A stretch of 64,000 nt of DNA, taken from the NCBI GenBank assembly GCA_032164295.1, contig JAJHTX010000003.1, positions 2,294,001 through 2,358,000 on the forward strand, in the 5' to 3' direction. Origin of the DNA: Inonotus obliquus. Its lineage: Eukaryota > Basidiomycota > Agaricomycetes > Hymenochaetales > Hymenochaetaceae. A program made the position numbers and the translations under genes. Below the pieces are notes generated by a model. That model made no database searches. It worked only from the letters and a program-made list of their open reading frames with translations, and was not told the DNA's origin. This document shows positions 15,409 through 50,006 of this stretch, in pieces (the stretch's first letter is position 1; every line of letters begins with the position of its first letter).

Positions 15409-15479
15409 AGGAATAGTACCATTGTATCCTAATGCCTGAGTTTTGTATGCGTTTCCGTTTGTAATAGGCCTATCTCGGT

Positions 15480-16495: not shown

Positions 16496-17785
16496 ATGTC
16501 TACGCAAATCAACATGGATGATTGGAGTTCCAAAGAAATCCTACAGGTATACATACTCATGCTTCTGTAACCGCGCCTCTCCAACTAACTCATGTCTGCA
16601 GATCGCGACTATCGGGTTCTATGAACCTGAAGCACCTTTAGATGTGCAGATCCATAGAGATGATGGTCCCCGAATCTCCGTGCCGTGGGCACAAATCCGC
16701 TCAAGGGTCCCTATGTGTTCAATTCAGTTGTCGACGGATGCGCCGATCCTAAAAATCTTCACGGATCTTAGAACGTTTGTTCATTGCCTGCCGGCGGAAG
16801 TGAGCATCCGTAATCTAGAGAGTTGGCAAGACACATTGAATTCAGCAGTGGCCACGATCATGATAAAAAGGCCTTTCTGGTCACTTTACATGCGAGCCGG
16901 CTGAGCTTGCAGTATGTGGGAATGGTTACATGGAGTCAAAGTCATTTGCTTACCTTTCCTTCCGCAATGACAGCAAAAACTTTCTCAAACCCTCGTAAGT
17001 CAGCCAACAATGCATAGTAATTGCTTCCCCCGTTCTAACCCCGAATCAAGGGCGGATTCACCAGCGGGTTTAAAAGCAGAACGGAAAGTCGCAACGGTCA
17101 TTGTCATCGTCAATCCCGATGACGAATATTCGGGCGGCAGAATTCGTGTCAAAAGCACCCACCACGACAAACACCGGGATTACGATTTCCAGACTAATAG
17201 CAAGAAGGGTCTGATCTCATTCCTCTTGTGCTCCTCTTGTGCTTTAACGGCCCGGTGAAGGAGGTCAAGACGGAGCCTGTGCAGAAAGGTCATCGTCTTC
17301 ATCTCATTTACAACGTTTACGCCGTGAAGCCCGAGGGCTTGACTATTACCAGCAAGAGGATGGACGAGCTCGTGACGAACATGGAGCAACTCGCTTCGCA
17401 CTCATCGTATAGAACTGCTACTCGTCACGAACCAGTTTTCCTGACACTCTTGCAGATACTTGCGCAAACTTACAAGTACGCTCCCCAAGCCTCCCGCGGG
17501 CGTCCTCCAATTCTATTGTCAGATCATCGAAGGCCTGTACAAGCAAACCGAAGCATTATTCGCCGCGGCCATACCATCCCCCGGAAACGTACGCAGAGCG
17601 CCCGATCCACAAAAATAGTATGTGCTTTGCGAAAATGTCCGGTTTCTCATACAGTGTACAGTGCCTTTGTAAAGAAGTCTCTTTACCAGACTATTGCATT
17701 GCACTCCCAAGGAAAAGCAACGCAGTGCTCGATGATGTTGCTGAAACTGGGTTTCGCGAATGAAGAGGATGACATTCTGATTTGA
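16496..17785 (+). pseudogene. P1: degenerate 2OG-Fe(II) oxygenase-like gene
   Basis: Clear relative of P2-P4, starting MSTQINMDDWSSKEILQ and keeping the first intron. The frame is broken in several places. There is a shift near 16680, where the other frame gives VGTNPLKGPYVFN, and a return near 16760. A one-base loss near 16867 turns TIMIK into a premature stop. An 11-bp tandem duplication at 17221-17242 (TCCTCTTGTGC twice) shifts the region before the GHRLHLIYNVY motif. A further shift lies near 17490. The micro-exon equivalent (NFLKPS, about 16977-16996) and the EYSGGRIRVK strand remain recognisable. No intact product is possible, so this is a pseudogene. Confidence 0.85.
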
Positions 17786-17940
17786 TTATTGCACTGTAAC
17801 TTTAGAGATTGTGAGAGAGATTGTTGTTGGTCTTTGTACGATTTAGCCGGCAATTTGACCGTGGGACCGCACCTTTTCCTTCCCACAGCTTACAACCCCT
17901 ATCCAGTTCACTCTGTACATGTGACACGGTCAGTCACAGG

Positions 17941-18639
17941 TGATGTCGGCTAAGCGGTGATCGACGCGAGGCCCTCGCAGGATCTGGAAAACCGAGGGCA
18001 TGCATGCATGTCCTTACAGCATATTCAATAAGTGATGTCAGTCTGCGTTTTTCTCTCGTACTTTCATGCAGGGTCCACCCCAAGGGGAAAACCCTGATCT
18101 CTATGGTGATCTCTTACAATCAACTACAAATGAGGATGAGTGAACGATCGCTGCACCAAATTGGGTAAATGATCCTTCTGCGACTGAGTTTCGATTATGT
18201 AGGATGGAAAAAACAATCGAAGTATCCAATACAAATACAGTCCAAACCTTTCGTGAGCCGGGTTTTAAATTCGTTTCACTCTCTCCTTGTTATATAAGTA
18301 ATTAAACCCTAGAAAATGATTGGTCATATACTACTGCCAAGAATAAGTGAAGGTGATGGCGGGAAGTTACCTGAAGTTACACATTTTGACCTTCACCAAT
18401 CCCCATGTTCACCGGTTGTTGGCGTTGTGATGCCCCAAGATCACCAATGGCACTTTGTTATGCGCACATTGGAAGGTACTGAGTCATTTTTTCCCTCTAA
18501 AAGTAAGATCATAGCCTTAGTCCCGGATATGCCAGATAGTACGCATTATGAGATAAGCGCGGGACCGGATCTGATAGCAACCATGAAATATCCGCGCGTA
18601 TCTTATAAGATACGCTGCGTAGCCCGGATCAGTAGTCGC
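17941..18639. other. Unassigned stretch with one open frame
   Basis: Region between P1 and the TPR gene fragment. The + strand frame 18316-18672 (MIGHILLPRISEGDGG, later HFDLHQSPCSPVVG and MPDSTHYEISAGPD) has an amino acid mix that could be coding, but I recognise no family and it runs into the duplicated TPR fragment. It may be a remnant of another gene. Nothing else is supported. Confidence 0.35.
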
Positions 18640-18930
18640 GGAATGTGGGGTCGTCGAGGTTGCAAAACCTGAACAAAGACAATTAGCAGGGAGAATCCGG
18701 AGGAACGGGAAAGTAATACTTGGCACACTTACGTTTGAATGTATGAGATCTGATAAGCCAGTCGCAGCAAAACGACCACGGGCAGATTTAGTGGCAGGAG
18801 TCAGATGCACAGCTCAAGCGCCTTGAAAGAGTAGGTGCTGACAGCAGCGGGTGCGGAGATCTGGGCGAACGCGCCAGAAAGAGTGTTTTCGACCTGAGGC
18901 TGTTAAGTTCATATTGTCTTTGTTCGAATA
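18640..18930 (-). pseudogene. 5' fragment of the TPR gene (broken copy)
   Basis: Matches the 5' end of the intact TPR gene (24236-24490 and its upstream DNA). It includes exon 1 (FAATGLSD in place of FAATGLSV), the first intron with its GTAAGTGT donor, and the start of exon 2 (FATSTTPHSATTDP). It stops abruptly at about 18640, where unrelated sequence begins. Exon 1 carries a frame change near the start codon (MNLTASGRKHSFWRV ends at a stop). It is therefore a truncated non-functional duplicate, joined on its other side to a pirin 3' fragment. Confidence 0.8.
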
Positions 18931-19365
18931 TAATCCTTGCTCGATACAGTTGCGGACAAAGTGACGGATAGCCTGACGGTGACGGTGACTCGAGACGGTG
19001 ACAGAGACATATTTGTGACGAGAGGCGATTTGTATGTATTACATGGCCGCAGACTCAGTACCTGATGGATAAATAAATCTGGTACTGTAACAGAGGTCAT
19101 CACTCCATCCCCTGGCTGGATGGAAGAGCGGTTGCGGCACCAGGGAGGACATTCACCTTGGCACCATCTTCGAGCTCCAAATACTTAAGCTTCAGACTGC
19201 CAGTGACGAGAAGATTAGTCCCTCTATCTCAGCTAGTCGAACAATTGTCTTATTTTTATTCTCCGTGTCATCTTTATTCTTTAGGCCTCGCGGTTGGAGG
19301 TATTTGGGGGGCTTCGAGAGGGTATAATGCGATCTCTTGCTTTATTACATTCCACAGTGTTTTAT
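18931..19365. repeat. Duplicated linker shared with 24.5-26.2 kb
   Basis: Upstream flank of the TPR fragment, shared with the DNA upstream of the intact TPR gene. It has the same landmarks (CTCCATCCC, GGCACCAGGGAGG, TTTAGGCCTCGCGGTTGG). This copy has no transposon at the site corresponding to 24597 (about 19034), so it gives a nearly empty paralogous site. No gene is seen in it. Confidence 0.7.
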
Positions 19366-19493
19366 TGAGCGAAAGTGTTGTGTTGCGAGAGGGAGATGGA
19401 GCGTATGTGTTTGGTGAGAAAGGGAAGGAACTCTCGGTTGAGAATATTGGCGATAGAGTTGCAGAGGTCTTGCTTTTTGATGTCGAGTAAAGG
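19366..19493 (+). pseudogene. Pirin 3' fragment
   Basis: Codes in frame for the last about 40 residues of pirin (ESVVLREGDGAYVFGEKG through VAEVLLFDVE and stop), nearly identical to 15285-15408, and continues into the same 3' flank. Everything upstream of ESVVL is unrelated to pirin, so no metal-binding residue is present. It is a gene fragment created by duplication or recombination. Confidence 0.85.
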
Positions 19494-20508
19494 AACAGTA
19501 CCATTGTATCCTAATGCCTGAGTTTTGTATGCGTCCCCGTCTTTCAAATAGGCCTGTATCTCGGTTATTGTACGTCAGTGGTTAAACATGATAATTTGTG
19601 GAGTTCGGAACTTGGTACTTACATAATTCGAACTGTTTAATTTTTTCGTGTATATATCGATTTTACTCATCTCCTTGAATGGGGGGCCACGAGTGGGATC
19701 GTCTTTGATAACTACATATTGCTTATAGACTCCACTTGTTAAAACTCCATAGTAGACTCCGTACCATTGGTCCATTCGATTTGCGAAATAGAAGCAATAT
19801 CACCCTCCTCTGCTGCTTTCCCGAGGCGACGATTAAGATGGATTCTGTGTGCAAAGGCTTTCGCGCTCATCCCACGTACGGTGTTTACATGGATACGAAA
19901 CAGGCCACTCAGGCTATCCCAGGTGCTAGGATATCCTAGTGATTTGATTTGGATTACTGCACTGTAACAGGCTGAGAGATCAGTATTGTGATAACTTTGA
20001 ATAAAATGTATTTTTCCCATCGAAGCAGCAAATTCTTGTCGACGTCCACTGAAACTACTTTGGCTGGTGTCTATGCGAGACTAGGCCATAAGTCTATCCA
20101 AGGAAAGGAATGAGGCCACAGACAGATATTGTGAGGCCTTTCCATTTGTGGCAGCCTGGCAGGCCCTGTCTTGAGAACACTGTGTTTCTTTGGCCGCCAC
20201 AGTCTCATACTCCGAAATCATGCAACCAGCCTTGCGTTACATGTCTACAGACAATCTGGGCATATGGCCTGGGCCACTTCAATGACCTCAGAGGTTGGCC
20301 AGCCTCTTCACGCCATTGACTTCATCAATAAGGTGAAACGTGGTGGCTCTCAATGTTGGCATCTCGGGTTGTGGCTTCTTTGTGGCTGTTGATTTTCAGG
20401 TGGCCGACCGTGGTATAAATTCTGAAGTTTCTGGGACCCGGGGCTCATCCCTCCCTCCCTCCCTTAAACCTCCCTCATATACTTGTTTGACTCTGCTGTG
20501 TCGAAATA
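19494..20508 (+). repeat. Conserved upstream block, copy 2 (promoter region of P2)
   Basis: Second copy of the block before P. The 82-bp GCGAAA/TTTCGC segment at 19783-19864 is in the orientation also seen in copies 3 and 4. A TATAAATTC box lies at about 20414, 95 bp upstream of the P2 start. The frame MQPALRYMSTDNL is disrupted here by a small deletion after KVKRGG, arguing that this stretch is not translated. Confidence 0.75.
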
Positions 20509-21789
20509 ATGTCTACGCAAATCAAAACAATCCTACAGGTATACATACTCTTGCTTATGTAACAGCGCGTCTCTAATTCATGTCTGCAGATAGCTACGGT
20601 CGGGTTCTATGAACCTGAAGTACCGTTAGCCATACAGATCCATAGAGATGATGGTCCAGACATCTTCGTGGGCAGAATGCAGCCCAGGGGCCCCTTGATG
20701 TTCAATCCAGCTGTCGCCGGATGTGTCGATTTTTATAAAAATATGCGCACGGATGGTAGAACGTTTCTCCGTTGCTTGCCGGAGGAAGTGCACATACGCA
20801 ATCTAGAGAGTTGGCAAAAGACGTTGAATGCAGCAGTGAACACGATCATGTTAAGTCAAGGCCTTGCTAGTCACTTTACGTGCGAGCTGGCTGAGCTTGC
20901 AATATTTGGGGAAGGTTATGGGTCAGTTGTCTAACACATGGAGTCAAAGTCATTTGCTTACCTTTCCTCGCGCATTGACAGCCAAAACTTTCTCGACCCC
21001 TCGTAAGTCAGCCAACGATGCATAGTAATTGCTTCCCCCATTCTAACCCAGTCAAGGGCGGATCCACCAGCGGATGAAAAAGCGGAACTGAAAGTCGCAA
21101 CGGTCATTGTAATCGCCAATCCTGACGACAAATATTCGGGCGGCAAAATTCGTATCAAGGGTCCTGACCGTGACAAACACCAGGAATACGATTTCCGGAA
21201 TAATAGCGAGAACGGTCTGATCTCCGTCCTCTTGTGCTTTAACGGCCCGGGGACGGAGGTCGAGACGGACCCTGTGCAGGACGGCCATCGTCTTCACCTC
21301 ATTTACAATGTTTACGTCGCGAAGCCTGAGGACTTGACTATTACCAGTCCCACGAGGAGGGGCGAGCTTGGCATGAACATGATACGACTCACTTTGAACC
21401 CATCGTTCAAATCCACCACTCGTCAGAATCTGAATCCAGTCTTCCTGAGGCTCTTGCAGATACTTGTGCAAACTTACAAGGACGCTCCCAAACCTCCCGC
21501 GGTCGTCCTCCAATTCTATTGTCAGATCATCGAATGCCTGTACAAGGAGACCGAAGCATTATTCTCTGACGCCAAACCATACCCCGCAAACGTACGCACA
21601 GCGAGAGCGCCCGATTCACTATTATTGTCTCAACTTTGCAAAAAGGTCCGGTGTGTCATACTGTACCTTGGTGGAATGAGGCCTCTTTACCAGGCTATCG
21701 CATTGCACTCCCAAGGAACAGCAACGCAGTGCTCGATGATGTTACTAAAACTGGGTTTCGCGAATGAAGAGGATGACATTCTGATTTGA
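20509..21789 (+). CDS. P2: 2OG-Fe(II) oxygenase-like protein lacking iron ligands
   Basis: Intact member of the P family, 371 residues in four exons: 20509-20538, 20590-20921, 20982-21002 (21 nt) and 21057-21789. The joined sequence is 372 codons with no stop. The layout resembles fungal prolyl-4-hydroxylase-like oxygenases. CELAELAIFGEGYG stands where such proteins have a strand like ELYKLLLYEKGS. NFLDPSADPPADEK (123-136) lines up with the FLPHKDTPRSEK type of motif. YSGGKIRIK stands for the GG-L-V strand, and GTEVETDPVQDGHRLHLIYN for EHEV..V..G.R.TLTYN. So the first His is Ser128, Asp130 is kept, the distal His is Thr194 and the 2OG-type Arg206 is kept. I infer loss of iron binding and catalysis. 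No targeting signal is seen. The role is unknown. Confidence 0.7.
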
Positions 21790-22059
21790 TTATTGCACTG
21801 TAACGTTAGAGATTGTTGTGGTGCTTTGTATGAATAAAAAGGATTTAACTGGCAAATTGACCGTGGGTGAGACCGCACCTTTTCCCACCCCTATCCCGCC
21901 CAAAACTCTGTACGTGTCACGGTCAGTCATAGGGATATGCTCCTGCCGAGTCAACATCGCTCGTACTGCTTCGCGACATGATTACGCAGACTCACGAGGG
22001 TCTTCAGTAGAAGGCGCTCCTCGATGTGTCTCCCCTTTTTGTTACACGTTAGGTTTTTA

Positions 22060-22301
22060 GTCCAGTGATGGCCAAATTTGTTTGAATGGCGCGACTTTGG
22101 GCCAAGTCCAAATCTTGGACCTTGTGACCCATTTCTCATCATTCCGTTACTATTGCGTTTGTATTGTTTCATTACATTTCATTACAATTGCGTTTTCTCG
22201 TGCGATATAGTGGACACTAGCTTGTCTGATCCCAGATCCAAAAAGAACCCCAGAAGTAATCAGGACGATCACTCCTCCGCACATGAGAACTTTGAGGTGT
22301 A
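22060..22301. other. Unassigned spacer after P2
   Basis: The 3' flank shared by P copies (AGAAGGCGCTCCTCGATG, about 22010-22028, also near 48.57 kb) ends just before this point. After it I see AT-rich DNA without a gene. The short motif CCTCCGCACATGAGAACTTTGAGG (22276-22299) recurs at 26470-26493. Confidence 0.4.
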
Positions 22302-22386
22302 GATAACCCTGCTGAGGCGAATGGTGCGAGCAGCGAGTGTACGAATTTCTGGTCCCACCAGTGATGGTGAGAGTGGTGCAGGGCTC
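22302..22386 (+). pseudogene. Short internal pirin fragment
   Basis: About 85 bp matching the pirin segment NPAEANGASVRIYG...SDGENGTG (around 15217-15290), with an insertion (GCAGCGAG for GCGAG) that breaks the frame. Flanks are unrelated to pirin. It is the smallest of the pirin pieces. Confidence 0.7.
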
Positions 22387-22445
22387 AGTAAGTACTAAGT
22401 ACCAGAGCAAGAGTGGAAGACTGAAAGAGACCGATAAGTGATTCA

Positions 22446-22981
22446 ATCTCTTTTGATGAGAAGGGGACGAGGAAGCGCCCAGCTCAAGCTCTTGTGCTAA
22501 GATTCAGAAAAATGTTCATAAAGAGATGACACGTTTGGAAGGGGTACAACTGATCAAGCCTGAGGACCATTCCTCCGCAGAGTACACAAAAGACCAGCTT
22601 CAGAACCTTCTTGTCCAGGTCGCGGGGTCTTCTCCATCTGATCACACTGCCGTGCAACTGGTAAAATACTCTGCGGACTCGGATGTGTCGCAGGCTGTAG
22701 CAGATAAAGTAGAAAAAGGCAATGGTGGTAGTTCCGGCGATGCGAAAGGTCTTCTGGTCGTGGTACTAATAGAGGCAGTTCTGGTTATAGAGGCAGTTGC
22801 CGTTATAAAGGCGGTTCAAGAGGCGGTTATGGTTGCGGAGGCGGTTCTGGTTCTAGAGGCAGTTATGATTCCAGACTAGAGGCAGTCCCGGAAGAAGCCA
22901 CACCTGATCGCGCGGTGCCAACGGTGCCATCGAAACAGATCGATAACGGGGGGCCAGAGAACACCAACCAAATAGACTAAG
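22446..22981 (+). pseudogene. Remnant of an RGG-box protein gene
   Basis: One frame reads GDEEAPSSSSCAKIQKNVHK and continues through DQLQNLLVQVAGSSPSDHT to KVEKGNGGSSG. It then loses the Gly pattern, while the next frame takes over with RCERSSGRGTNRGSSGYRG, GGSRGGYGCGGGSGSRGSYD and a tail ending ENTNQID and stop. A frameshift near 22740 explains this, so the RGG/GYRG repeat tail is no longer joined to the upstream part. Such tails are typical of RNA-binding proteins. The parent family is not recognised and no intact parent is in the window. A spliced, still functional gene cannot be ruled out. Confidence 0.5.
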
Positions 22982-23344: not shown

Positions 23345-24490
23345 TTATTGTGGCCCTTTACCTTCCTCGGCTTCCTTCATTCTCTTGCCAAGTATTTTTG
23401 CACTGACCTGCTTAAATCAAGCAATATGCATATAACAAGATCAAATGGAGGAGAACCCACGTTTCGTATATGAACCTCAGCTCGGTCAACCCCATTCGCT
23501 TTACTTCGTTTGTAATAAGTGAGGGCCTCTTCAAGCCTGCCGCCTGTTCAGGTGACGAAACAACAATAGCATTCGTCCATCAGTCAAACATGCCATTTTC
23601 AACAATAACATAGGTGTGAATGCTCACAGGCTTCCAATACTGCCGCCAAATTGAAGGCTATCTCAGGATCCTCTGGTGCAAGCGACGACGCAATTCTGAT
23701 TGGTTTTCGTCAATATCGGCCTTGAAGTTAGGGCGGCCGAAGGATGCTTTACCGAAGATGGTGCAGAGCAAGATCGGGCCGCGAAACTGGTGAGATGATG
23801 TAGGCACTTGCCAAGTCTGAATCGAAACTGATAAGCAAGAAAAGAAACTTCATAACAAGAAGGACGAACTCGTGTGAGCATCGGGACTCGATGGTTGGAG
23901 CTCAATTGACTCTTTCCAAGCAGTTATAGCTTCATCAAACTCCTCTTCATTGAAGATTTGACAGAATGAAAAACCGTGGAATGCAATATAAAATTGGATA
24001 TGAGTTGAGTAACCGTGTGGAAGAAGAGGGGCACCGACTGAGATGATAGTGCGTGACTCCAAGATTGAATAGAGATCCGGCGTCCCGCTTTATGTTGACG
24101 GACCGTTGATATAGTGCTTTTGCTCCCTCGATGTCGCCTTCCTCAAGCTTTTGGGTTCCTTTTTCGAGGCATACCTGAGCTTCTGTCTCTGAGGGATCGG
24201 TAGTCGTGGAATGTGGGGTCGTCGAGGTTGCGAAACCTGAACAAAGACAATTAGCAGGGAGAACCCGGAGGAACAGGAGAGCAATACTTAGCACACTTAC
24301 GTTTGAATGTAAGAGATACTGATAAGCCAGTCGCAGCAAAACGACCACGGACAGAGTTAGTGGCAGGAGTCAAATGCAAAGCATGAAAGCGCCTTGAAAG
24401 AGAAGGTGCTGACAGCAACGGATGCGGAGATCTGGGCGAACACGCCGGAAAGAGTGTGCACCAGTGTTTTCGACAGGCTGTTATGTTCAT
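23345..24490 (-). CDS. TPR-repeat protein, probably mitochondrial
   Basis: Intact gene of 246 residues in seven exons: 24490-24301, 24236-24039, 23944-23870, 23816-23753, 23695-23628, 23543-23461 and 23407-23345 (247 codons with stop). The N-terminal 65 residues are Ser/Arg-rich with few acidic residues, consistent with import into mitochondria. Tetratricopeptide repeats follow: CLEKGTQKLEEGDIEGAKAL, GSLFNLGVTHYHLKEFDEAI, PDAHTNLASAYI and PEIAFNLAAVLEACGRLEEA. The tail is KILGKRMKEAEEGKGPQ. Such small TPR proteins are conserved in fungi as scaffolds; the partner is unknown. A broken copy of its 5' end is at 18.6-18.9 kb. A transposon lies 108 bp upstream of the start codon, probably inside the promoter. 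Confidence 0.85.
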
Positions 24491-24598
24491 ATTGTCTTTG
24501 TTCGAATATTATCCTTGCTCGATACAGTTGCAGACAAGTGACGGACAACGGAGAGACGGTCACAGTGACGTATTTGTGACGAGAGGCGATTTGTACTA

Positions 24599-25884: not shown

Positions 25885-25886
25885 TA

Positions 25887-26430
25887 CTGTGACACGTGAG
25901 GCAGAAGACATACCCAGCAGATAAGTTATTCCAGTACCGTAGCAGGTCATCGCTCCATCCCTGGATGGCAGAGCTGTTGTGGCACCAGGGAGGTCATTCA
26001 CCTTATCATCTTCGAGATCCAAATACTCAAGCTTCAGACTGACGAGAAGATTAGTCGTGTTTGTATCTCAGCTAGTCGAACAATTGTCTTATTTTTGTTC
26101 TCCGTGTCGTCTTTACTCTTTAGGCCTCGCGGTTGGAGGTATTTGGGGGCTTCGAGTGGGTATAAGGCGACCTCTTCTCTTGCTGTATTACATTCCACGG
26201 GTTGTGTTGCGAGAGGGAGATGGAGCGCATGTGTGGAGCGTATGTGTTTGGTGAGAAAGGGAAGGAACTTTCGGTTGAGAATCTTGGTGGTAGAGTTGCA
26301 GAGGTTTTGCTTTTTGATGTTCTGAAAGGAACACTACTAGTGTATCCTTCTGTCTTTGAGTTTTGTATACCTTTCCGAGTCCGTTTTGATCTCGGTGTGC
26401 GATAGTAGTCAAGCATGATAATTTGTATGC
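25887..26430 (+). pseudogene. Duplicated linker with a pirin 3' fragment
   Basis: Resumes the sequence shared with 19.03-19.58 kb after the transposon. From about 26206 it reads into the last pirin codons (LREGD, then AYVFGEKGKELSVENLGGR and VAEVLLFDV) with a small internal duplication (GAGCGCATGTGTG before GAGCGTATGTGTTTGG). The natural stop is lost: the frame continues LKGTLLVYPSV. It is a non-functional fragment. Similarity to the pirin flank ends at about 26430. Confidence 0.75.
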
Positions 26431-36131: not shown

Positions 36132-39100
36132 ATGGCATTCTTCGGATCCAAGTCTATTGAGCGTGACTTGAGGCGGTCCTACTCAACAGACCGCCTCCGC
36201 CGAGACCACGACCGGACACGTACAACGTCAACTCCGACCTCCAACATGCAACCACACAAATTACACAGATCAAAATCAACCATGCCCTCTGCTGACGAGT
36301 TTGGCGTTGTGCCATGTGGAATGAGTAGTGGAAAGGGGGACCCACCCTCGTTGACATTCTCGACTACGACGGCCTCCGTTTCGCTTACCTCCCATCCATT
36401 AACACCTGTTGCATCACCCTCGTTATCCGTCCCGGTCTCCGTCAACGGGACACGTAGCCCTTCGTCGTCTCCTACGAGTTCGCTACATAAGCAACCGTCG
36501 TCGAGGACGAGGACAATCAGTGGGAGTGGAAGCAAACATTCGACAAACTCACATTCCTCGAACCCCTCTCGCAGACGCACACCTCAACTCGAAGTGGAAG
36601 AGGCCCCTTCATCCGATGCGGTGGCACGCTTACGCCGCCCAAGTACCGGATCAAGTAGTAGTAAGAAGGGTGACGCGGTAACTCGGACATATTCATCGTC
36701 GGAGCTTAAGGTGGAACGTACCGTTTCCAAGTCACGATCTAAAAATTCTATGCACGCACAGGCGATCAATGATGGCGCTGTTGGTGCTGCGGAGTCGGGC
36801 ACGTCGGGGATTATTCCTGCTCGTCCGCCCCGGAGTACGCGCCCTCCTGATACGATTCAAGCAAGCTCGTCTAAGCCCTCACCTCCTTCCAGCACAAAGG
36901 TCGTCGCTTCTCCAAGTCAGAAGCATAATGAACCGCTAAAACGCGGTGACTCACGAGTGACACGAAATGTCTCTTCTTCCTCAACTCCCTTAACCAGTCC
37001 TTCGAATGCTAGGCTTCCATTGAAGCAGATTGCATCTCCATCCTCCTCCTCTGGTCCTACTATGTCGTCCACTGCGTTACGACGTGAAGACTCCTCGTTA
37101 TCAGTACCGGCGAATGCGAAAAAAGCCTCTTGTGGGAACGCGTCTGACAGTTCCTACGGCACTCCCTTTACAGAATTCGGCGTCGGTGGGTTCAACGTCA
37201 AACGCCTACTATCGAAACCAGCTGCGAACACTGCATCAGCCGGCGTGCGTTCCGAGCCCGATGCGAGTACGGACTCGTACGACTCGTATGGCGCGTACGC
37301 ACTTGCAGCGAGACGACGGCGTGTGGAAGGAAGAGGTGACGCGACGACGACACCTTCATCTATCTACTCGTTGACAGGAGGGAATTTGAGCGCAGGATCG
37401 CGGGATCATTCGCGTAAGCCGACGACTTCTGATCCGGAACCACCACGGCACGGTATGGGTAGCCTTGGGCGTTCAAGGGGATTAGAGTGGGGACACGTTC
37501 TTGGTCGAGAAAGGGAACGCGAACGCGAGCGAGGAAAGGCACATACGCGAGAAGGTTCGTCGTATTCGCTTTCCTCACCTTCAGAAGGTGCACCTGGGTA
37601 TCCATACGGTCTAGCCTACGAGCGGATAAATGACCGTCGAGGGAATAAAAATACCCGTCCTGTCATTCAACTTACTACAAGTGCCGTTAGACGCCTTTCA
37701 GCTTTTGGGATAAGAGAGGCGGACCGTAATCACGAGCGCGAGAGGTCCCATTCGCCCGCGACGCCTATGACGTTCGGGCCTGCTCCATCTCCGACACCAT
37801 CGCCGCTTACAGGAGCATCGGCGTCAAACAGTCGTCCCGGGACGCGAACTGGAGGACGCATATCGACCCAGCCGTCACCAACAACAACTAGTTCGAGTGT
37901 TGTTCGTCGAGCGGAATCGCCAAGACCACCTGTCGGGCTAACACCCGCAGAGATCGTCGCGCATCAGTATAAGGAACAAGAACGTCGACGGGCGGAGCTT
38001 GAACGCGAGGCTACGAGGGAAGCGGAGGTACCAGAGATGATACACACGTCCATGCAGTCGATAGACATTGGCGAGTTTGAGTATGAGAAGTCTCAGAGGA
38101 CCGTGCGTGTCAGGGACAGGGAGCAAGACAAGGAGCAAGCCAGCTCACTTGTCCGTCGAGCTAGTGCAAACGCACTTTCGAGTCCTACCTCCCATGTCTC
38201 AAATCCTAGTCATCACAAGAGCGACGGGAACACCATAGGGGAGCCTCCATCCACTCCGTATTATACCGTCTTTGGTGAACCTAGCGGGCGCATCGTTAAT
38301 ATTGGCTCGGCGCGAGACAGTGCTTTTGGCATATTTAATCGCGCACAGGAGAAAAGGGCGAAGGAGACCGAGCAAGCCGTTGTATCAGAACTCTCGGGGT
38401 GCGCCTCAAGTGGTATCTCCGTCACCACCACCACAACAACAAACGGGTCCACCGATGCACTTGGTGCTATAATCACCGTAGAGAAACCGTCCAAGTCGCA
38501 AACACTCCGACGTAAGCTTTCGCGCAAGATGTCTGGGAAGTTTAAGGGTGATGGGGGTTTGGCGCGGAGTGGTGGCGGTACTAGTGGTGGCGCTAGTGGC
38601 AGGGAAAGTGGAAAGGAATCATGCGATGGACGTGATGAGAGGCTTGAACTTGGGGAGTTACTTGCCGGAGGAAGTGGTCTAGGCGGTGACGATTGGTATA
38701 CATACGGCACGGAAGGTATCTTACGCGCTCGACCTAGCTTGACGCTGAATACCTCGACGGCGACTTCCGGGAGGCGAAGTGCGACGCTTCCGAGAGAGAA
38801 GAATCCTACATCGGTGAAGATGTCGTTGGATAGCTACGTTGCTGTTCAGAGCGTCGAGTCAGCGTCGGGTGGGGTGCTACCGTCTGCGATGAATGGTGTA
38901 CCATCTGGTATGCATGGAAAGAATCGACCGAAGGACGAGAAGGATAAGGATAAAGGGAAATTATGGGGTCTCGTGAAGCGCATTAGCTCAAATACGCTGA
39001 AGGACAAGTATAAACGATGTTCATCGGAGATGGTCCCACCCGTTCCGGCGCTTCCCCGAGATGTTTCATCCTCCACGCACGTATCACCGATACTCGATGA

Positions 39101-40571
39101 TGACAAATACAAATATCGACCTGACGGGGAAAGTCCCCGAGAAGGAAGAGGAGTAGGAGTGGACGCGTATGCTATTCATCTTGGTACTCCACCATCTTCC
39201 CGTCCGTCTTCACGAAGACCGTCAACTGCACCTGCGTTGAATTTTGGAGAGTTGAGTAGTGGTAATAAGGAAGGAAGGTTTGCTACGTTGCGAAAGAAGA
39301 CTTCTGTTGCTCAGGTTCGACCGACGACGTCTTCGTTACTTGGAACGTCTCCGACTACTCAAGTCTCTCGCCCCAGCGCCACGACTCGTTCGTCCTCACC
39401 CATGTCGTCCGATTTGCTCTTCTCGTATAAGCATTCGGACGTTTCGTCTGTGACTTCGTATGGAGATTTGACTTCTCCGAGTAGCAAGCTCTCCCGAGGT
39501 CATCCCGTTCTTGGTGAACACATTTTGCCACCAGAGACACTTTCCATGTTCGATGAGCTCAATATCAACTTTGAGCTACGAAAAGAGGACGATACGAGGA
39601 GTAAACCCGAATCTCGTGCTGCAGTAGCAGAAGGCTACGATAGCCTATTCTACGGCGAAGAACCCATGTGTCATCAAGCTTTACCTGTCCCGCCTCGACG
39701 ACCACCTTCAGCACCTTTAGTAAGAACAGACACAGTTGATGATTCACGATCGGAATCACCAACTATTCCTTCGTTCTCTGCGGATTATGCTATTAATACG
39801 TTTGGAAATCAGAATCGTAAACGAGCTGTTTCTACTGTTACTGGTTCGGAATTTGGAGGGAATGGTGGTGGTGCTGGTGTTGGTAAAGGGACAGGGTCGC
39901 CACCGGGTTCTTCTGGGTCGCCTGCTTCTTCGGTTAAAGGAGATCCTCCACCTCGGCCGCCACGAAGTGCACTTCGTGCACTTCCCATGCCGTCCACTAC
40001 AATAAACGCCAACTCCAACTCCAACGCATACATTCCACACTCACCACATATTCCTCCACCGCGTTCAACATCCTCCTCTTCACCCTCTCACGCACGTACG
40101 GTTTTTGAAGACCGAGTAGGTGGGCGTACTTCGATTGGAGGACACAGTCAAGCTTCTACAGCACGTCCAAGCGTCTTACGTTCTTCTTCGTCACCTTGTT
40201 CAACACCTTCTCCACCTCCACCTCCAGAACTCCTCGACTCATCCCATCAATCACCTGTCTCCGCTTCTGATTCTGCTTCTAGTACGATGACGTTCCGTGA
40301 TCTCAACATCAATCTCAACCTCAACCTCGACCTCAACTCTACCATCGCGAATTCGAATTCGAATGGTGGTGGGGTAGGTGATGGTGTTGTGGGTGGTGGT
40401 AGACCGACGTTAACGGAGAAGGAGAAAATGGAAAAATGGAATGATTTGTTGGATAGGAGCGAGAGAGCTGGTGGGACGTTGCATGTGGGAGTTGGAGGTG
40501 TTTTGTTGAGTGATCAGTTGAGAGAGTCGAGTTATGAACCGACGATTAGGGATTCGTTGTATGATTATTGA
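36132..40571 (+). CDS. Large Ser/Pro-rich disordered protein, single exon
   Basis: An uninterrupted 1,479-residue frame, unusual in this intron-dense window. I do not recognise a named family. The protein starts MAFFGSKSIERDLRRSYSTD and is mostly Ser/Thr/Pro/Arg low complexity, with short islands of better sequence. These are VKRLLSKPAA; AVRRLSAFGIREADRNHERE; a charged helix HQYKEQERRRAELEREATRE (about 610-630); YYTVFGEPSGRIVNIGSARD (about 710-730); a basic LRRKLSRKMSGKFKG (about 787-801); KLWGLVKRISSNTLKDKYKR (about 943-962); and a C-terminal EKMEKWNDLLDRSERAGGTL. The many R-x-x-S sites and basic patches suggest a phosphorylated cortical or signalling scaffold, which is inference. ATG 36132 is preferred over 36045 because the DNA between them looks like a 5' leader intron. 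Confidence 0.75.
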   Translation: MAFFGSKSIERDLRRSYSTDRLRRDHDRTRTTSTPTSNMQPHKLHRSKSTMPSADEFGVVPCGMSSGKGDPPSLTFSTTTASVSLTSHPLTPVASPSLSVPVSVNGTRSPSSSPTSSLHKQPSSRTRTISGSGSKHSTNSHSSNPSRRRTPQLEVEEAPSSDAVARLRRPSTGSSSSKKGDAVTRTYSSSELKVERTVSKSRSKNSMHAQAINDGAVGAAESGTSGIIPARPPRSTRPPDTIQASSSKPSPPSSTKVVASPSQKHNEPLKRGDSRVTRNVSSSSTPLTSPSNARLPLKQIASPSSSSGPTMSSTALRREDSSLSVPANAKKASCGNASDSSYGTPFTEFGVGGFNVKRLLSKPAANTASAGVRSEPDASTDSYDSYGAYALAARRRRVEGRGDATTTPSSIYSLTGGNLSAGSRDHSRKPTTSDPEPPRHGMGSLGRSRGLEWGHVLGRERERERERGKAHTREGSSYSLSSPSEGAPGYPYGLAYERINDRRGNKNTRPVIQLTTSAVRRLSAFGIREADRNHERERSHSPATPMTFGPAPSPTPSPLTGASASNSRPGTRTGGRISTQPSPTTTSSSVVRRAESPRPPVGLTPAEIVAHQYKEQERRRAELEREATREAEVPEMIHTSMQSIDIGEFEYEKSQRTVRVRDREQDKEQASSLVRRASANALSSPTSHVSNPSHHKSDGNTIGEPPSTPYYTVFGEPSGRIVNIGSARDSAFGIFNRAQEKRAKETEQAVVSELSGCASSGISVTTTTTTNGSTDALGAIITVEKPSKSQTLRRKLSRKMSGKFKGDGGLARSGGGTSGGASGRESGKESCDGRDERLELGELLAGGSGLGGDDWYTYGTEGILRARPSLTLNTSTATSGRRSATLPREKNPTSVKMSLDSYVAVQSVESASGGVLPSAMNGVPSGMHGKNRPKDEKDKDKGKLWGLVKRISSNTLKDKYKRCSSEMVPPVPALPRDVSSSTHVSPILDDDKYKYRPDGESPREGRGVGVDAYAIHLGTPPSSRPSSRRPSTAPALNFGELSSGNKEGRFATLRKKTSVAQVRPTTSSLLGTSPTTQVSRPSATTRSSSPMSSDLLFSYKHSDVSSVTSYGDLTSPSSKLSRGHPVLGEHILPPETLSMFDELNINFELRKEDDTRSKPESRAAVAEGYDSLFYGEEPMCHQALPVPPRRPPSAPLVRTDTVDDSRSESPTIPSFSADYAINTFGNQNRKRAVSTVTGSEFGGNGGGAGVGKGTGSPPGSSGSPASSVKGDPPPRPPRSALRALPMPSTTINANSNSNAYIPHSPHIPPPRSTSSSSPSHARTVFEDRVGGRTSIGGHSQASTARPSVLRSSSSPCSTPSPPPPPELLDSSHQSPVSASDSASSTMTFRDLNINLNLNLDLNSTIANSNSNGGGVGDGVVGGGRPTLTEKEKMEKWNDLLDRSERAGGTLHVGVGGVLLSDQLRESSYEPTIRDSLYDY

Positions 40572-43961: not shown

Positions 43962-44542
43962 GTTGGAAGTTGGAGTTGGGAGAGGATCTTAAAAAATCAG
44001 GCCTCCTGCTTGGTCAATACCTCTAATACCTCTGTTCGAACTTCATTTTTCCGGGTATATTCAATTTCGAAATTACACTCCTACATAATAGACATCTTCA
44101 TTTTCGAGGCTACAGTTGGTTTGGCACTAAATACTCCCACCTCCCACCCCTTCACAATCAATAACGGAATGGATTAATCTTACGGGTGACAACAATTGAT
44201 CACTAGTACTGTCGCACCGTATGTACATATTGGATTTGTTTTTAGGAAAAATCTATTGTGTTCCTTTTGTTCTTTGGATCCATCGACCCGACTGGAGTCC
44301 TGAATCTGAACAAGTGCTCTTTAGATTAAGGTTCAAAGCCCGGCCTGAATCTTGTTGGCTGCATGTGCAGCATGTCGAGAAAGACAGTGCACAGCGTATG
44401 ATGCTGTGATGGGATAGAAAGGGGGAGGGGAATGCAAAGTCAACGAAGACGATGGGAGGATGGAGCAACTAGTACTGTGGGAAAAGGGGGCCCACGTTAT
44501 TCACTCAAAGTAAGTGATATTCACAACAATATTATGTAATCT
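43962..44542. other. Intergenic between two convergent genes
   Basis: No gene seen. This stretch lies between the 3' ends of the Lys-rich gene and P3, at the outer limit of the inverted duplication. Confidence 0.45.
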
Positions 44543-45821
44543 CTACCATCTAACATTGCTAACAACCACCAAGTTTTCCGCCATATCCAGTTTCAGCAAC
44601 ATCTTCGCCAACCGCGCTGCTTTTTCTTGCGAGTGCGATTTAATAAGTCGGTAAAGACTCGCATCTCCGCCAAGGCACTGCATGACAAACCCGACCTTGT
44701 CGCGAAGTTCAGACAGTTTATGTGGATCGGCCTGCCTCTCACCGCGTACGTTTGCGGGATTTGATCTAGCCGCAATGAATAACGCTTTAGTCTGCTTGTA
44801 CAGGCCATCGATGATCTGACAATGGAATTCGAGGACGCCCGCGGGAGGTTTGGGAGCGTCTTTGTAAGTTTGCGCAAGTATCTGCACGAGTCCCAGCAAG
44901 ACTGGATTCTCAGTAGATCTAAGCGATGGGATCAAAGCGAGTTGCATCACGTTCATACAAAGCTGGCCCATCCTCTTCGTACTCGTAATAGCCAAGTCCG
45001 AGTGATTCACGTAAACATTGTAAATCAAATGAAGACGATGGCCATGCCGCACTGGGTCCGTCTCGACCTTCGTCCCCGGGCCGTTAAAGCACAAGAGGAC
45101 GGAGATCAGACCCTTCTCGCTATTAGTCCGGAAATCGTATTCCCGGTGCTTGTCGTGGTGGGTGCTTTTGACACGAATTTTGCCGCCCGAATATTTGTCG
45201 TCAGGTTTGGCGATGACGATTACCGTTGCGACTTTCAGTTCCGCTTTTTCGTCCGTTGGTGAAACCGCCCTTGATTTGGGTTAGAACGGGGTAAGCAATT
45301 ACTATGCATCGTTGGCTGACTTACGAGGGGTCGAGAAAGTTTTCGCTGTCAATGCGCGAAGAAAGGTAAGCAAATGACTTTGACTCCATGTGTTAGACAA
45401 CTGACCCATAACCTTCCCCAAATATTGCAAGCTCAGCCAGCTCGCACGTAAAGTGACTAGCAAGGCCTTGATTTATCATGATCGTGCCCACTGCTGCATT
45501 CAACGTCTTTTGCCAACTCTCTAGATTGCGTATGTGCACTTCCTCCGGCAAGCAACGGAGAAACGTTCTACCATCCGTGTGCATATTTTTTCTAAAATCG
45601 ACACATCCGGCGACAGCCATATTGAACATTAAGGGGCCCCTGGGCTGTATTCTGCCCACGAAGATGTCGAGACCATCATCTCTCTGGATCTGCATGTCTA
45701 GAGACTTTTCAGGTTCATAGAACCCGATAGTCGCGATCTGCAGACATGAGTTAGAGAGGCGTGGTTACAGAAGCAAGAGTATGTATACCTGTAGGATTGT
45801 TTTGAATGTCCAAGCATCCAT
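44543..45821 (-). CDS. P3: 2OG-Fe(II) oxygenase-like protein lacking iron ligands
   Basis: Intact P family member, 370 residues in four exons: 45821-45789, 45737-45406, 45345-45325 (21 nt) and 45269-44543. It starts at MDAWTFKTILQ because the ATG used by its relatives is TTG here. The metal-site segment reads NFLDPSAVSPTDEK, so both the His and the Asp of the HxD motif are replaced (Ser and Val). The strand YSGGKIRVK is followed by GTKVETDPVRHGHRLHLIYN, with Lys-Val where active enzymes have the distal His, but the Arg is kept. The C-terminal helical part (QILAQTYKDAPKPPA, GLYKQTKALF) is shared by the family. The tail after KLDMAENL differs from P2 and P4. Its frame and splice sites survive despite divergence, suggesting it is expressed. 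Confidence 0.68.
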
Positions 45822-46920
45822 GTTGATTTGCGTAGACAATATTTCGATACAGCAGAGTCAAACGAGTATATGAGTGAGGTTTGTGAGGGAGGAAGTAATG
45901 AGCCCTTAATCCCAGAAACTTCGGAATTTATACCACGGTCGGGTACCTGAAAATCACCAGCCACAAAGAAGCCACAACCCGAGATTCCAACATTGACCAG
46001 CCACCACGTTTCACCTTATTGATGCAGTCAATGGCGTGAAGAGGCTGGCCAACCTCTGAGATCATTGGATCGGACTGAAGTGGCCCGGGCCATATGCCGA
46101 GATTGTCCGTAGACATGTAACACAAGGCTGGTTGCATGATTTCGGAGCATGAGACTGAAGCGACGCAACCAAGCCCATATTACGCGTCACGGTTGCCTAC
46201 ATACAGTTCATGACAGTAGTCAGACGAATACCGGGCCTTGACCTCGAATTTTTGACTCCATTCGTGGCCTGGTGGCCAAAGAAACACAGACATGGCCTGC
46301 CACAAATGGAAAGGCCAAACAACATCTTGGCTGTGGCCTCATTCTTTCTCTTGGATAGACTTATGGCCTAGTCTCGCATAGACACCAGCCAAAGTGGCTT
46401 ATGTAGCCAGCGAACTGAAGTAGTCTCAGTGGACGTCGACAAGAATTTGCTGCTTCGATGGGAAAAATCCATTTTATTCAAAGTGATCACAACGCTGATC
46501 TCTCAGCCTGTTACAGTGCCGTAATCCAAGTCAAATCATTGGGATATCCTACCTGGGATGGTGGCCTATTTCGTATTCATGTGAATACCGTACATGGGAT
46601 GAGCGTGAAAGCCTTTGCACACAGAATCCATCTTAATCGTCGCCTCGGGAAAGCAGCAGAGGAGGGTGATATCGCTTCTATCGGAAATCGAATGATACGG
46701 GAGTCTACTATGGAGTCTGCTCAAATGGAGTCAATAAGCACAATGTAGTTATCAGAGCATATCTATGATCTATACGGTCCCACTCGTGCTCTCCCCCCAC
46801 ATTCGAGGAGATGAGAAAAATCGATAAACATATGTAAATACATGAAAGACTAAAATAGTTCGTTTTAAGTACCAAATTCCGAATTCCACAAATTTGTACA
46901 ATAACCGAGATACAGGCCTA
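45822..46920 (-). repeat. Conserved upstream block, copy 3 (promoter region of P3)
   Basis: Inverted copy of the block upstream of P. A TATAAATTCC box lies at about 45930-45935 on the - strand, roughly 110 bp before the P3 start. The 82-bp segment has the same orientation relative to P as in copy 2, but its boundary repeats have decayed (GTGAAA and TCGGAAA). The opposite-strand frame MGKIHFIQSDHNADL is open here for 96 codons. Confidence 0.75.
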
Positions 46921-46945
46921 TTACAAACGGAAACGCATACAAAAC

Positions 46946-48010
46946 TCAGGCATTAGGATACAATGGTACTATTCCTTTACTCGACATCAAAAAGCAAGAC
47001 CTCTGCAACTCTATCGCCAATATTCTCAACCGAAAGTTCTTTCCCTTTCTCACCAAACACGTACGCTCCATCCCCCGGACCCCCTCTCGTAGCACAACAC
47101 TTTCACCTGTACCATTCTCGCCGTCACTGGTGGCACCATAGATACGCACACTCGCGCCGTTCGCCTCAGCAGGATTGTAGCCACTTGTCTGCACGACATG
47201 TACATACTTCTTCCTCGCCTCCTCCACCTTCCCTTCCGGCCTCTGCGTCTGAATATTCCAAACTTTCTCTGGAAAACCTGAACTCAGCTTCGTCCCAGGA
47301 CTCAACAAGCTAGCCCAAAGCGTTACAGGACTCTGAACAGGTGCAGGTCCTTCGCCTTCCCTTTCGTGTACAACCCCATCTTCTCCTACAGGTGCAACTA
47401 TTCGACACCATTTATCACGCTTGTCGTCGTCGGAGAAATGGCGTGTGAAGTATTTGGCTGGGAGGTTGGGTTTCCATGGTAGAGTCCAAATTTGTAAGAA
47501 GTGGACCGGGGAGGGAGAGGAAGAAGGACATCTTTCGGAATGTGAGATTCCTGGAGAGCCTGCGGAGGTTAGTTGGAGGTCTCCTCGGTGCAGAAATTCC
47601 GTGTTGGACATCGAGTCTTTACTATTAAGCACAACAACGCGGATATTAGTGGAGTAAAGAGAGAAGGGAGGAAAGCATGAACATACTGCTCGAGTTCACC
47701 GGAAACGACGTAGGAGAAAATCTCAAACTCGCTATGCGAATGCGTTCCAAATCCTGTTCCAGGTTGGACACGATCCTCATTTATGACGCGTAAACTACCG
47801 GTTTGCATGTGGTTTTGGTCTTGATACCTATATCCGATACCATTCAATTAGCATACACCCCGAACCCGAAGACGAATGGAAAGAAGGAACGAACATAGCA
47901 AATGAAAACGTATGAAACGACTTTAACCACCCACGATCTGCATGTCCACGATCTTTACTCCAACGAGGGATAATCTTGACACCACTCGCGATATCCAAAT
48001 CAACGACCAT
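46946..48010 (-). pseudogene. Second pirin copy with a frameshifted C-terminus
   Basis: Nearly identical to the intact pirin, with the same three exons and all four metal ligands (GTHSHSEFE and ISHSE). An 8-bp insertion near 47071-47085 (TCCGGGGG in the coding sense) after SVVLREG shifts the frame. The normal ending with AYVFGEKG and VAEVLLFDVE is replaced by VRGMERTCLV and about 40 unrelated residues ending PLYPNA. The last cupin strands are therefore lost. The N-terminus reads MVVDLDIA instead of MGVDLDIA. It is most likely a recent pseudogene; a partly functional protein cannot be excluded. Confidence 0.8.
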
Positions 48011-48184
48011 CTTCAGTCTTTTGACTTCTTCCGTCGTAGCAGACTTTGCGAGAGAAGAGTATATGCGCGAACGAGTCGCGTTTATCACTGTGCGCAAGAG
48101 AGAGCGAATCAATCCAAATTTTTATCTTTCGCCTCGACTCCACTCCAGTGCCTTCCTCTTCACCGCCGCTCAGTGCTGCTGATA

Positions 48185-48346
48185 ATGGCCACACTCCTCC
48201 CGCCCCCGAAAAGGCCTAGAATCTACCACGGCGTCCCAGGGCCTGACAAATCATCTTCTCCAGCTGAGATAGCGCCCGTTCCGAATGTCGTAGTACGAGC
48301 TTCTACTACTCTTATCTTTGGTACTAGTGTCCGGCTGGTCTCTTGA
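48185..48346 (+). pseudogene. 5' fragment of RSA4
   Basis: Encodes MATLLPPPKRPRIYHGVPGP and on to IAPVPNVVV, matching codons 1-38 of the intact RSA4, then runs into unrelated sequence (RASTTLIFGTS) and a stop. It lies head to head with the second pirin copy exactly as in the original locus. It shows where the duplication ended, at about 48296. Confidence 0.85.
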
Positions 48347-48693
48347 CCCCGACTAAGTACTTACTGTTGCTACTCTACTCTAAGCGCCGTCTCGCACTTT
48401 CCATTGCTTATCAAGACGGATTATGTATATTGCCAGACTGAGTGGACTTGTTCTGGTGCATCGAAATCGACGTCGATCACTGGCAAAGCTTAGCGAGACC
48501 GTGGGAAAGAACGAAATTTGATAGGTCCAAGATTTGGACTTGGACAAAAAGGGGAGACATCGAGGAGCGCCTTCTACCGAACTGCGTGACCAACGAGCTT
48601 GCGAGGCTGTGACTGACCGTGTCACATGTACAGGGTGAACTGCGGTCAAATTGCCGTTTTTTTCTATTCAAAGCACCACAACAATCTCTAATG
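48347..48693. other. Junction and 3' flank of P4
   Basis: Holds the junction between module 3 and module 4 and the shared P 3' flank (AGAAGGCGCTCCTCGATG on the - strand, near 48557-48574, and a GTGACACGG motif). No gene is seen. Confidence 0.5.
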
Positions 48694-50006
48694 TTACAGT
48701 GCAATAATCAAATCAGTGTCACTCTGCACATTCGCGAAACCCAATTTCACCAACAGCGTCGTGCACTGCGTTGCTTTTTCTTCGGAGTGCAATGCGATAG
48801 TCTGGTAAAGAGGCTTCGTTCCACCATGGCACTGTATGACACACCGGACCTTTTCGCGAAGTTCATACAATAATCGTGGATCGGACGCTCTCGCTGTGCG
48901 TACGTTTGCGGGGTATGGTTTGCCCGTAGCGAATAATGCTTTGGTCTGCTCGTACAGGCCTTCGATGACCTGACAATAGAATTGGAGGACGACCGCGGGA
49001 GGTTTGAGAGCGTACTTGTAAGTTTGCGCAAGTATCTGCATGAGTGTCAGGAAGACTGGATTCTGACCAGTAGCAGTTCTAAACGATGGGTTCAAAGTGA
49101 GATGTTCCACGTTCGTATTAAGCTGTCTCATCCTCTTGGTACTCGTAATAGTCAAGCCCTCAGGCTTCACGATGTAAACATTGTAAATCAGATGAAGACG
49201 ATGGCCATCCCGCACAGGCTCCGTCTCGACCTTCGTCCACGGGTCGTCAAAGCACAAGAGGACGGAGATCAGACCCTTCTTGCTATTCGTCTGGAGATCG
49301 TAATCCTGGTGTTTACCATGGTGAGCGCTCTTGATACGAATTTTGCCACCCGAATATTTGTCTTCAGGATTGGCGATGACAATGGCCGTTGCGACTTTCA
49401 GTTTCGCTTTCTTATCCGCTGGTGGGTACACGCTTGATTTGGGTTAGAACGGGGTAAACAATTGTTATGCATTGTTGGCTGACTTACGAGGGTTTGAGAA
49501 AGTCTCTGCTGTCAGTGCTGAAGGAAAGGTAAGTAAATGGCTTTGACTCCTTGTGTTAGACAACTGACCCATAACCTTCCCCAAATACTGCAAGCTCAGC
49601 CAGCTCGCACTCAAAATGACCAGCAAGGCCTTGATTTTTCATGATCGTGTTCACTGCTGAATCAAACTTCTTTTGCCAACTCTTTAGATTATGGACGTTC
49701 ACTTCCGCCGGCCGGCAACGAACAAACGTTCTGAGATCCGTGCGAAGAATATTTTTAGGATCGACGCATCCGTCGAGAGCTGAATAGAACACATTGGGGC
49801 CCCTGAGCGGAGTTATGCCCACGGAGATTCGAGGTCCATCATCCCTCTGGATCTGTGCATCTAATGGACTTTCAGGTTCATAGAACCCGATAGTCGCGAT
49901 CTACAGACATGAGTCAGTTGGAGAGGCGCGGTTACAGAAGCATGAGTATGTATACCTGTAGGATTTCTTTGGAACTCCAATCATCCATGTTGGGTTGCGT
50001 AGACAT
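48694..50006 (-). CDS. P4: 2OG-Fe(II) oxygenase-like protein lacking iron ligands
   Basis: Intact P family member, 380 residues in four exons: 50006-49956, 49900-49569, 49508-49488 (21 nt) and 49432-48694. It starts MSTQPNMDDWSSKEILQ. The metal-site segment reads DFLKPSVYPPADKK, so neither the His nor the Asp of HxD is present. The distal His position falls in WTKVETEPV, and the Arg in DGHRLHLIYN is kept. Other shared parts are FYEPESPLDAQIQRDDGP, FVRCRPAEVNVHNLKSWQ and VQLPS-like IANPEDKYSGGKIRIK. The tail ANVQSDTDLIIAL is longer than in P2. The promoter block with a TATA box precedes it, but no pirin sequence lies beyond that block. It is a putative pseudo-oxygenase with unknown role. Confidence 0.68.

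What the first reader, a model, noticed from the sequence alone, without database searches (positions are those of the whole stretch)
16496..50006. Gene P: a four-copy family that looks like a 2OG-Fe(II) oxygenase without its iron ligands
P2 (20509-21789), P3 (45821-44543) and P4 (50006-48694) each splice into intact proteins of 370-380 residues with identical exon layout; P1 is broken. Seen in sequence: a strand CELAELAIFGEGYG, the segment NFL.PS...P..(D/E)K encoded mainly by a 21-nt exon, YSGG(K/R)IR.K, and GHRLHLIYNVY. From knowledge of fungal prolyl-hydroxylase-like oxygenases, these line up with ELYKLLLYEKGS, FLPHKDTPRSEK, GG-L-V, and EHEV..V..G.R.TLTYN. The His of HxD is Ser (P1-P3) or part of PSVY (P4). 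The Asp is kept in P1 and P2 but is Val in P3 and Tyr in P4. The distal His is Thr or Lys. The 2OG-type Arg is kept in all. Inference: a lineage-specific pseudo-oxygenase family, perhaps a 2OG or peptide binder, kept under constraint in at least three copies.
Basis: partly seen in the sequence, partly recalled or inferred. Interest (0 to 1): 0.82.

Follow-up and report, generated by a model that had tools for sequence, protein, structure and literature searches.

The report
Fast-evolving prolyl-hydroxylase relatives lacking iron ligands
A fungus carries a cluster of duplicated genes that appear to keep the fold of an iron-dependent protein-modifying enzyme but have lost its iron-binding histidines, and whose protein sequences change unusually fast, which suggests that a dead enzyme has become a binding protein.

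The parts
16496..17790 (+). P1, broken copy of the family
   Evidence: frame changes and stops in all three frames; family matches in pieces over several frames
20509..21789 (+). P2, intact copy, 4 exons, 371 aa
20982..21002 (+). P2 exon 3, 21 nt, phase 2 on both sides; counterpart of the 18-nt exon that carries the HxD motif in gene S (L060)
21057..21315 (+). P2 exon 4, oxygenase-like part: GG motif and GHRLHLIYNVY strand with Arg206
21316..21789 (+). P2 exon 4, C-terminal part with stop codon: predicted all-helical, the fastest-evolving part
44543..45821 (-). P3, intact copy, 4 exons, 370 aa
48694..50006 (-). P4, intact copy, 4 exons, 380 aa
19715..19900 (+). remnant of the end of a Q-type short copy, upstream of P2
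   Evidence: tblastn of Q, 55% identity, E 1e-17
50734..50871 (-). remnant of the end of a Q-type short copy, upstream of P4
   Evidence: tblastn of Q, 74% identity, E 2e-16
46569..46718 (-). remnant of the end of a Q-type short copy, upstream of P3
   Evidence: tblastn of Q, 57% identity, E 2e-14
15669..15809 (+). remnant of the end of a Q-type short copy, upstream of P1; 15692-15772 matches in inverted orientation
14291..17812 (.). duplicated block containing a pirin-like gene (name from memory) and P1
   Evidence: blastn of the window against itself: 14291-15978 matches 48102-46405 inverted (93%); 15978-17812 matches 50518-48681 inverted (84%)
44587..51047 (.). inverted counterpart with P3 and P4 as a tandem pair
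   Evidence: 44587-46887 matches 48741-51047 directly, 85%

Best explanation
The P family consists of non-catalytic descendants of a fungal prolyl-4-hydroxylase-like 2OG-Fe(II) oxygenase. SHOWN by sequence: homology to PF13640-type fungal proteins; a predicted double-stranded beta-helix of prolyl-hydroxylase type (model only); no His ligand at either position in all seven open copies, with no ligand set shared between copies; retention of the 2OG-type Arg; a tiny HxD exon between phase-2 introns shared with S, an active-type gene about 12-20 kb from copies P5, R and Q; frames kept open in five long copies while amino acids change about as fast as, or faster than, synonymous sites. INFERRED: an S-type gene was duplicated, its copies lost iron chemistry before the present copies separated (R and Q lack the ligands too), and the fold plus a helical C-terminal domain was reused as a binding surface. 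Much of the diversity lies in the helical domain and on one face of the helix predicted at residues 82-99, so the proteins probably recognise partners that vary, for instance as regulatory decoys of active oxygenases or as recognition factors. Which partner they bind is unknown.
Against: No transcript or protein evidence. Pfam scans of the single proteins find no 2OG domain in any of the seven. Q alone (24.5) does not exceed the shuffle range against A3, and single members against S score only 20.3-37.1, several no better than shuffles; Q and R belong by similarity to P. P's first intron has no counterpart in S as modelled, and the start and most of the 3' half of S were not modelled. Few single pairs differ significantly from dN/dS 1. 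Gene conversion can inflate site tests; regions prefer different trees. Exons differ more than introns, but third positions do too, so part of the excess may come from intron constraint or uneven conversion, and the 3' flank is also diverged. Choosing the open copies favours open frames (five of seven long copies). The model is of moderate confidence (best pLDDT 68, the other four 50-63; pTM 0.67; Foldseek TM-scores under 0.5) and carries two intron-coded loops. The omega control is crude: unspliced open frames, two of the genes lack the HxD Asp themselves, and one recent pair has 0.64.
Confidence: 0.6

Rival explanations
1. Relics: inactive oxygenase duplicates drifting to decay, intact only because the segmental duplications are recent.
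For: Overall dN/dS near 1; two of seven long P copies are already broken, P1 and P7; the first start codon is lost in P3; the window's copies sit in duplicated blocks 82-93% alike.
Against: About 20 stops expected on the tree under neutrality, none in five copies; exon gaps mostly multiples of three, upstream gaps not; omega significantly above 1 in the C-terminal part; splice sites kept in all intact copies.
Confidence: 0.2
2. Passive hitch-hiking: copy number is driven by the repeat-rich duplicated blocks with a pirin-like gene, and P has no role tied to its oxygenase ancestry.
For: P copies and pirin-like gene copies recur as units in direct and inverted arrangement.
Against: P5, P6, Q and R lie outside the window, about 45-180 kb from its start, and are also open; the upstream region of P6 differs from that of P2 at about half its sites (0.47) while its coding frame stays open.
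Confidence: 0.1
3. Still an enzyme, using another metal site or metal-free chemistry in the same pocket.
For: The Arg at the 2OG-binding position is invariant in all seven; an Asp is present near the first or second ligand position in some copies.
Against: No His at the ligand positions; the candidate Asp126 alternates with Lys and Asp130 with Val or Tyr between copies, so no ligand set is shared.
Confidence: 0.06
4. Unrelated fold with motif look-alikes.
For: No single-sequence hit to a 2OG family in Pfam, NCBIfam or PDB sequences.
Confidence: 0.03

Closest known systems
Fungal PF13640 (2OG-FeII_Oxy_3) proteins, several named 'Prolyl 4-hydroxylase alpha subunit Fe(2+) 2OG dioxygenase' or 'Fe2OG dioxygenase domain-containing', including gene S (L060) and the L013-type array of this genome
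   Same: Core strands, GG motif, G-x-R..L.Y strand, predicted fold; with S also the two phase-2 introns around a tiny HxD exon
   Different: P lacks the His ligands, has a helical C-terminal part without detectable counterpart in S, falls below Pfam detection and has omega about 1 rather than mostly 0.15-0.47
C-terminal domain of OGFOD1/Tpa1 (PMC4396695, passages read)
   Same: A double-stranded beta-helix in a prolyl hydroxylase protein that has no metal site
   Different: There it is fused to an active domain in a protein conserved from yeasts to humans; P is free-standing, multicopy and fast-evolving
N-terminal domain of vaccinia C16 (PMC9674614, passages read)
   Same: PHD2-like fold whose cofactor-binding residues are not conserved and which is reported to bind PHD2; a C16 chain (8ag3_C) is among the Foldseek hits of the P2 model, rank 11, E 2.1e-3
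   Different: Viral protein, another second domain, no sequence relationship claimed
Snake small serum protein genes (PMC6609765, passages read)
   Same: Gene array with Ka/Ks above 1 between some copies while their introns differ little
   Different: Unrelated proteins; an evolutionary parallel only

Membership tests
2OG-Fe(II) oxygenase fold family (PF13640-like, prolyl-hydroxylase type) | sequence homology of the core domain | tested here: met
   hhalign score 68.8, E 1.3e-8; best of 100 shuffles 28.4. Pfam scans of the single proteins negative in 7 of 7
2OG-Fe(II) oxygenase fold family (PF13640-like, prolyl-hydroxylase type) | double-stranded beta-helix fold | tested here: met
Active 2OG-Fe(II) oxygenases | HxD...H metal triad | tested here: not met
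   no His at either position in 7 of 7 open copies; an Asp at the HxD position only in P2 and P6 and only in the profile alignment
Active 2OG-Fe(II) oxygenases | Arg or Lys that binds the 2OG carboxylate, ten residues after the distal His | tested here: met
   Arg in 7 of 7; the role is recalled knowledge of this superfamily
Active 2OG-Fe(II) oxygenases | iron- and 2OG-dependent turnover | not testable with these tools
   needs biochemistry
S-type fungal oxygenase subgroup | HxD encoded by a tiny exon between two phase-2 introns | tested here: met
   18 nt in S, Q and R, 21 nt in P2-P6, same phases. Whether other S-type genes share this was not examined
S-type fungal oxygenase subgroup | homologous C-terminal region | tested here: inconclusive
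   A2 against an S C-terminal piece scores 13.8, below the shuffle maximum of 23.8
Pseudogenes | loss of open frame in step with divergence | tested here: not met
   P2-P6 open where about 20 stops are expected on the tree; P1 and P7 are broken

The most novel reading that the evidence does not exclude
A clustered, diversifying family of metal-free prolyl-hydroxylase folds acts as a recognition or decoy system in this fungus: the dead oxygenase pocket and a fast-changing helical domain bind variable partners, either to regulate active paralogues or for self/non-self or antagonist recognition.
Probability: 0.25. Interest if true: 0.75.

Novelty: new variant of a known kind. Interest (0 to 1): 0.55.

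Why it matters
Metal-free relatives of 2OG oxygenases are known as a fused domain (OGFOD1/Tpa1) and as part of a viral protein (C16), but my paper searches (listings only) showed no report of a free-standing, expanding, fast-evolving cellular family. If expressed, it would be a case of an enzyme fold turned into a diversifying binding protein, with a possible source gene 12-20 kb from the nearest copies and divergent members (R, Q) still present, so loss of catalysis and gain of diversity could be traced step by step. It also shows that Pfam scans of single sequences can miss such proteins.

Tried and rejected
Single-protein searches of Pfam, NCBIfam (24, P2 only) and PDB sequences (11, P2 only) gave no 2OG hit; only MLLE (E 0.03) and LisH_TPL (E 0.19), both judged chance. 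P2 and the seven-member alignment A2 found nothing at E <= 1 among 1406 and 3943 word-sharing candidates of 5.8 billion proteins. That library holds many mushroom-forming fungi, but the search needs shared exact words, so distant relatives elsewhere are not excluded.
Full report
OBSERVATION. The three intact copies are as described. P2 (20509-21789), P3 (45821-44543) and P4 (50006-48694) have four exons of 30/33/51, 332, 21 and 733/727/739 nt, GT...AG introns of 51-60 nt, and proteins of 371, 370 and 380 residues. P1 is broken. A search of the window's own genome (36.07 Mb in 30 contigs; the window is C3:2294001-2358000) shows further copies on the same contig. Two are intact long copies: P5 (374 aa, near 2.240 Mb) and P6 (371 aa, near 2.117 Mb). 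Q (210 aa, near 2.248 Mb) is a short open copy that ends just after the last core strand. P7 beside it is broken. R (353 aa, near 2.246 Mb) is a divergent copy, 24% identical to P2, with the same four-exon layout and an 18-nt exon 3. Each of the four P copies in the window is preceded by a remnant of a Q-type end, so the ancestral unit was probably a tandem Q-P pair. The window holds two inverted sets of such units, mixed with copies of a pirin-like gene (name from memory).

IS IT AN OXYGENASE RELATIVE? Single-sequence Pfam, NCBIfam and PDB searches say nothing. The same Pfam library finds PF13640 in gene S, L013 and P0003, so P is below that threshold. The profile test is clear. Of the 120 listed relatives (of 1744) of the genome's own L013 protein, 39 were aligned (A3). 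hhalign of the seven P-family proteins (A2) against A3 gives probability 95.6%, E 1.3e-8 for the one comparison, score 68.8, aligned over the oxygenase core. One hundred column shuffles of A2 reach at most 28.4 and the reversed alignment 20.4. Taken singly against A3, P2-P6 and R score 35-49; Q scores 24.5, inside the shuffle range, so Q belongs by its likeness to P.

SHARED EXON STRUCTURE. Searches with P0003 (E 1.7e-7) and with R (E 0.006) both point to one further gene on contig C3, at about 2.2268-2.2285 Mb, some 12-20 kb from P5, R and Q. This gene, S, encodes FLPHQDTEK, GGQVHVSH and DVVHEVKPITSGYRLALSYNL, that is, a complete HxD...H site with the Arg, and PF13640 is over its cut-off (28.8 bits against 27). 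Its HxD lies in an 18-nt exon; the introns before and after it are both phase 2, and the second splits the Asp codon. Exon 3 of P2-P6 is 21 nt and of Q and R 18 nt, with the same two phases. I regard this as independent evidence for homology. P's first intron has no counterpart in S as modelled; the start of S and much of its 3' half were not modelled. A2 against S scores 51.4 (best of 60 shuffles 24.9), but single members score 20-37. The intron anchor gives a second alignment of the metal site: the split codon, Asp in S, is Ser in P2-P6, Leu in Q and Phe in R; the codon for the first His is Asp or Lys in P2-P6, Asp in Q and Glu in R. In the profile alignment the His position is Ser128 and the Asp position is residue 130 (D, V, Y, V and D in P2-P6), so P2 and P6 would keep the Asp. 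In neither register is there a His. Ten residues before the invariant Arg, where S has the distal His, P2-P6 and Q have Val and R has Ile.

HOW IT EVOLVES. Pairwise Nei-Gojobori dN/dS among the five intact long copies (ten pairs) is 0.77-1.27 over the whole protein, 0.50-1.92 in residues 11-74, 0.43-1.06 in the core (75-216 of P2) and 1.07-1.79 in the C-terminal part; few single pairs differ significantly from 1. As a crude control, unspliced open frames of related genes at C3:1.33-1.36 Mb give 0.15-0.47 in 15 of 16 pairs computed and 0.64 in the most recent pair; two of these genes, L057 and L058, themselves lack the HxD Asp. A codon model gives omega 1.23 (whole), 0.83 (N-terminus plus core), 0.85 (core) and 2.0 (C-terminal part); omega = 1 is rejected only in the last (2dlnL 16.7; the others 3.4, 1.5, 0.75). 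M2a beats M1a with 2dlnL 54.5, 32.0, 15.5 and 40.3, with a tree chosen for each region. Leaving out the most diverged copy P6 keeps the result, weaker in the core (40.5, 29.5, 8.7, 24.9). In the core run the sites called are 91, 94 and 98, spaced like one face of the helix predicted at residues 82-99. Regions prefer different trees, so conversion between copies has probably happened and the site tests must be read with caution. Pooled over the ten pairs, introns differ at 8.8% of sites, exons 2-3 plus the exon 4 core at 16.2% and the C-terminal part at 25.7%. In variable-site counts the excess over introns is clear for the C-terminal part, moderate for exons 2-3 and not significant for core positions 1+2; third positions exceed introns as well.

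Neutral decay does not fit well. A simulation gives about 3.3 stop codons per 0.10 substitutions per site in a P2-sized frame. The tree of the five copies holds 1.82 substitutions per codon, about 0.61 per nucleotide, so about 20 stops would be expected; there are none. The five were chosen for being open, but they are five of seven long P copies. Most exon gaps are multiples of three, the exceptions lying in exon 4 of pairs with P3 or P6, while upstream gaps have all lengths. Relaxed amino-acid sequence with a guarded reading frame, plus omega above 1 in one part, is the pattern of diversification rather than decay. This is inference from sequence: no transcripts were available.

RANGE. Neither P2 nor A2 found a relative at E <= 1 in 5.8 billion proteins, although the same library returned 1744 relatives of L013, many from named fungi such as Termitomyces, Pleurotus and Suillus. 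The search needs shared exact words, so 'restricted to this lineage' is probable, not proven.

MECHANISM. The usual iron-dependent hydroxylation is excluded as far as sequence can do so. The retained Arg and GG motif may be structural, or may keep a weak 2OG or carboxylate pocket; I cannot tell. The two precedents for metal-free prolyl-hydroxylase folds that I read in passages are the OGFOD1/Tpa1 C-terminal domain (PMC4396695) and vaccinia C16, whose N-terminal domain is reported to bind PHD2 (PMC9674614). With the fast-changing helical C-terminal part this favours a binding role with variable partners; a decoy or regulator of the active paralogues and a recognition factor are the two concrete forms. 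Combined confidence 0.6; the homology alone about 0.95.

NOVELTY. A new variant of a known kind: pseudo-oxygenases exist, a multicopy diversifying cellular family did not turn up in my paper searches (listings only).

Noticed in passing
L057 and L058 (C3:1329410-1330318 and C3:1344257-1345132): Two paralogues of the L013 array read FLTAHNYARTG and FLTAHNYSRTG instead of FFKAHKDTPRG: the HxD Asp is Tyr while the distal His is kept. This looks like an independent loss of a metal ligand in the same genome.
   Followed up: partly
C3:1326806-1364165 (parts held as L061-L064): An array of L013-type PF13640 genes and fragments on the same contig as the P cluster, found with P0003.
   Followed up: partly
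C12:1535015-1535359 (L075): Another match to gene S (31% over 111 residues, E 2e-5), outside contig C3.
   Followed up: no
window 14291-15313 and 47080-48102: Inverted, 99% identical copies of a pirin-like gene (name from memory), with a matching 3' stretch at 19371-19540.
   Followed up: no
window 18626-19034 with 24194-24595, and 19094-19530 with 25944-26368: Two further direct repeat pairs, 83-86% alike, not part of the P units.
   Followed up: no
P0086, P0093, P0098: Relatives of the fungal L013 oxygenase are annotated in the tardigrade Paramacrobiotus metropolitanus, 38-47% identical: transfer or contamination.
   Followed up: no
window 36045-40571 (+): A single open frame of 1508 codons, visibly rich in Ser, Pro and Thr.
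   Followed up: no
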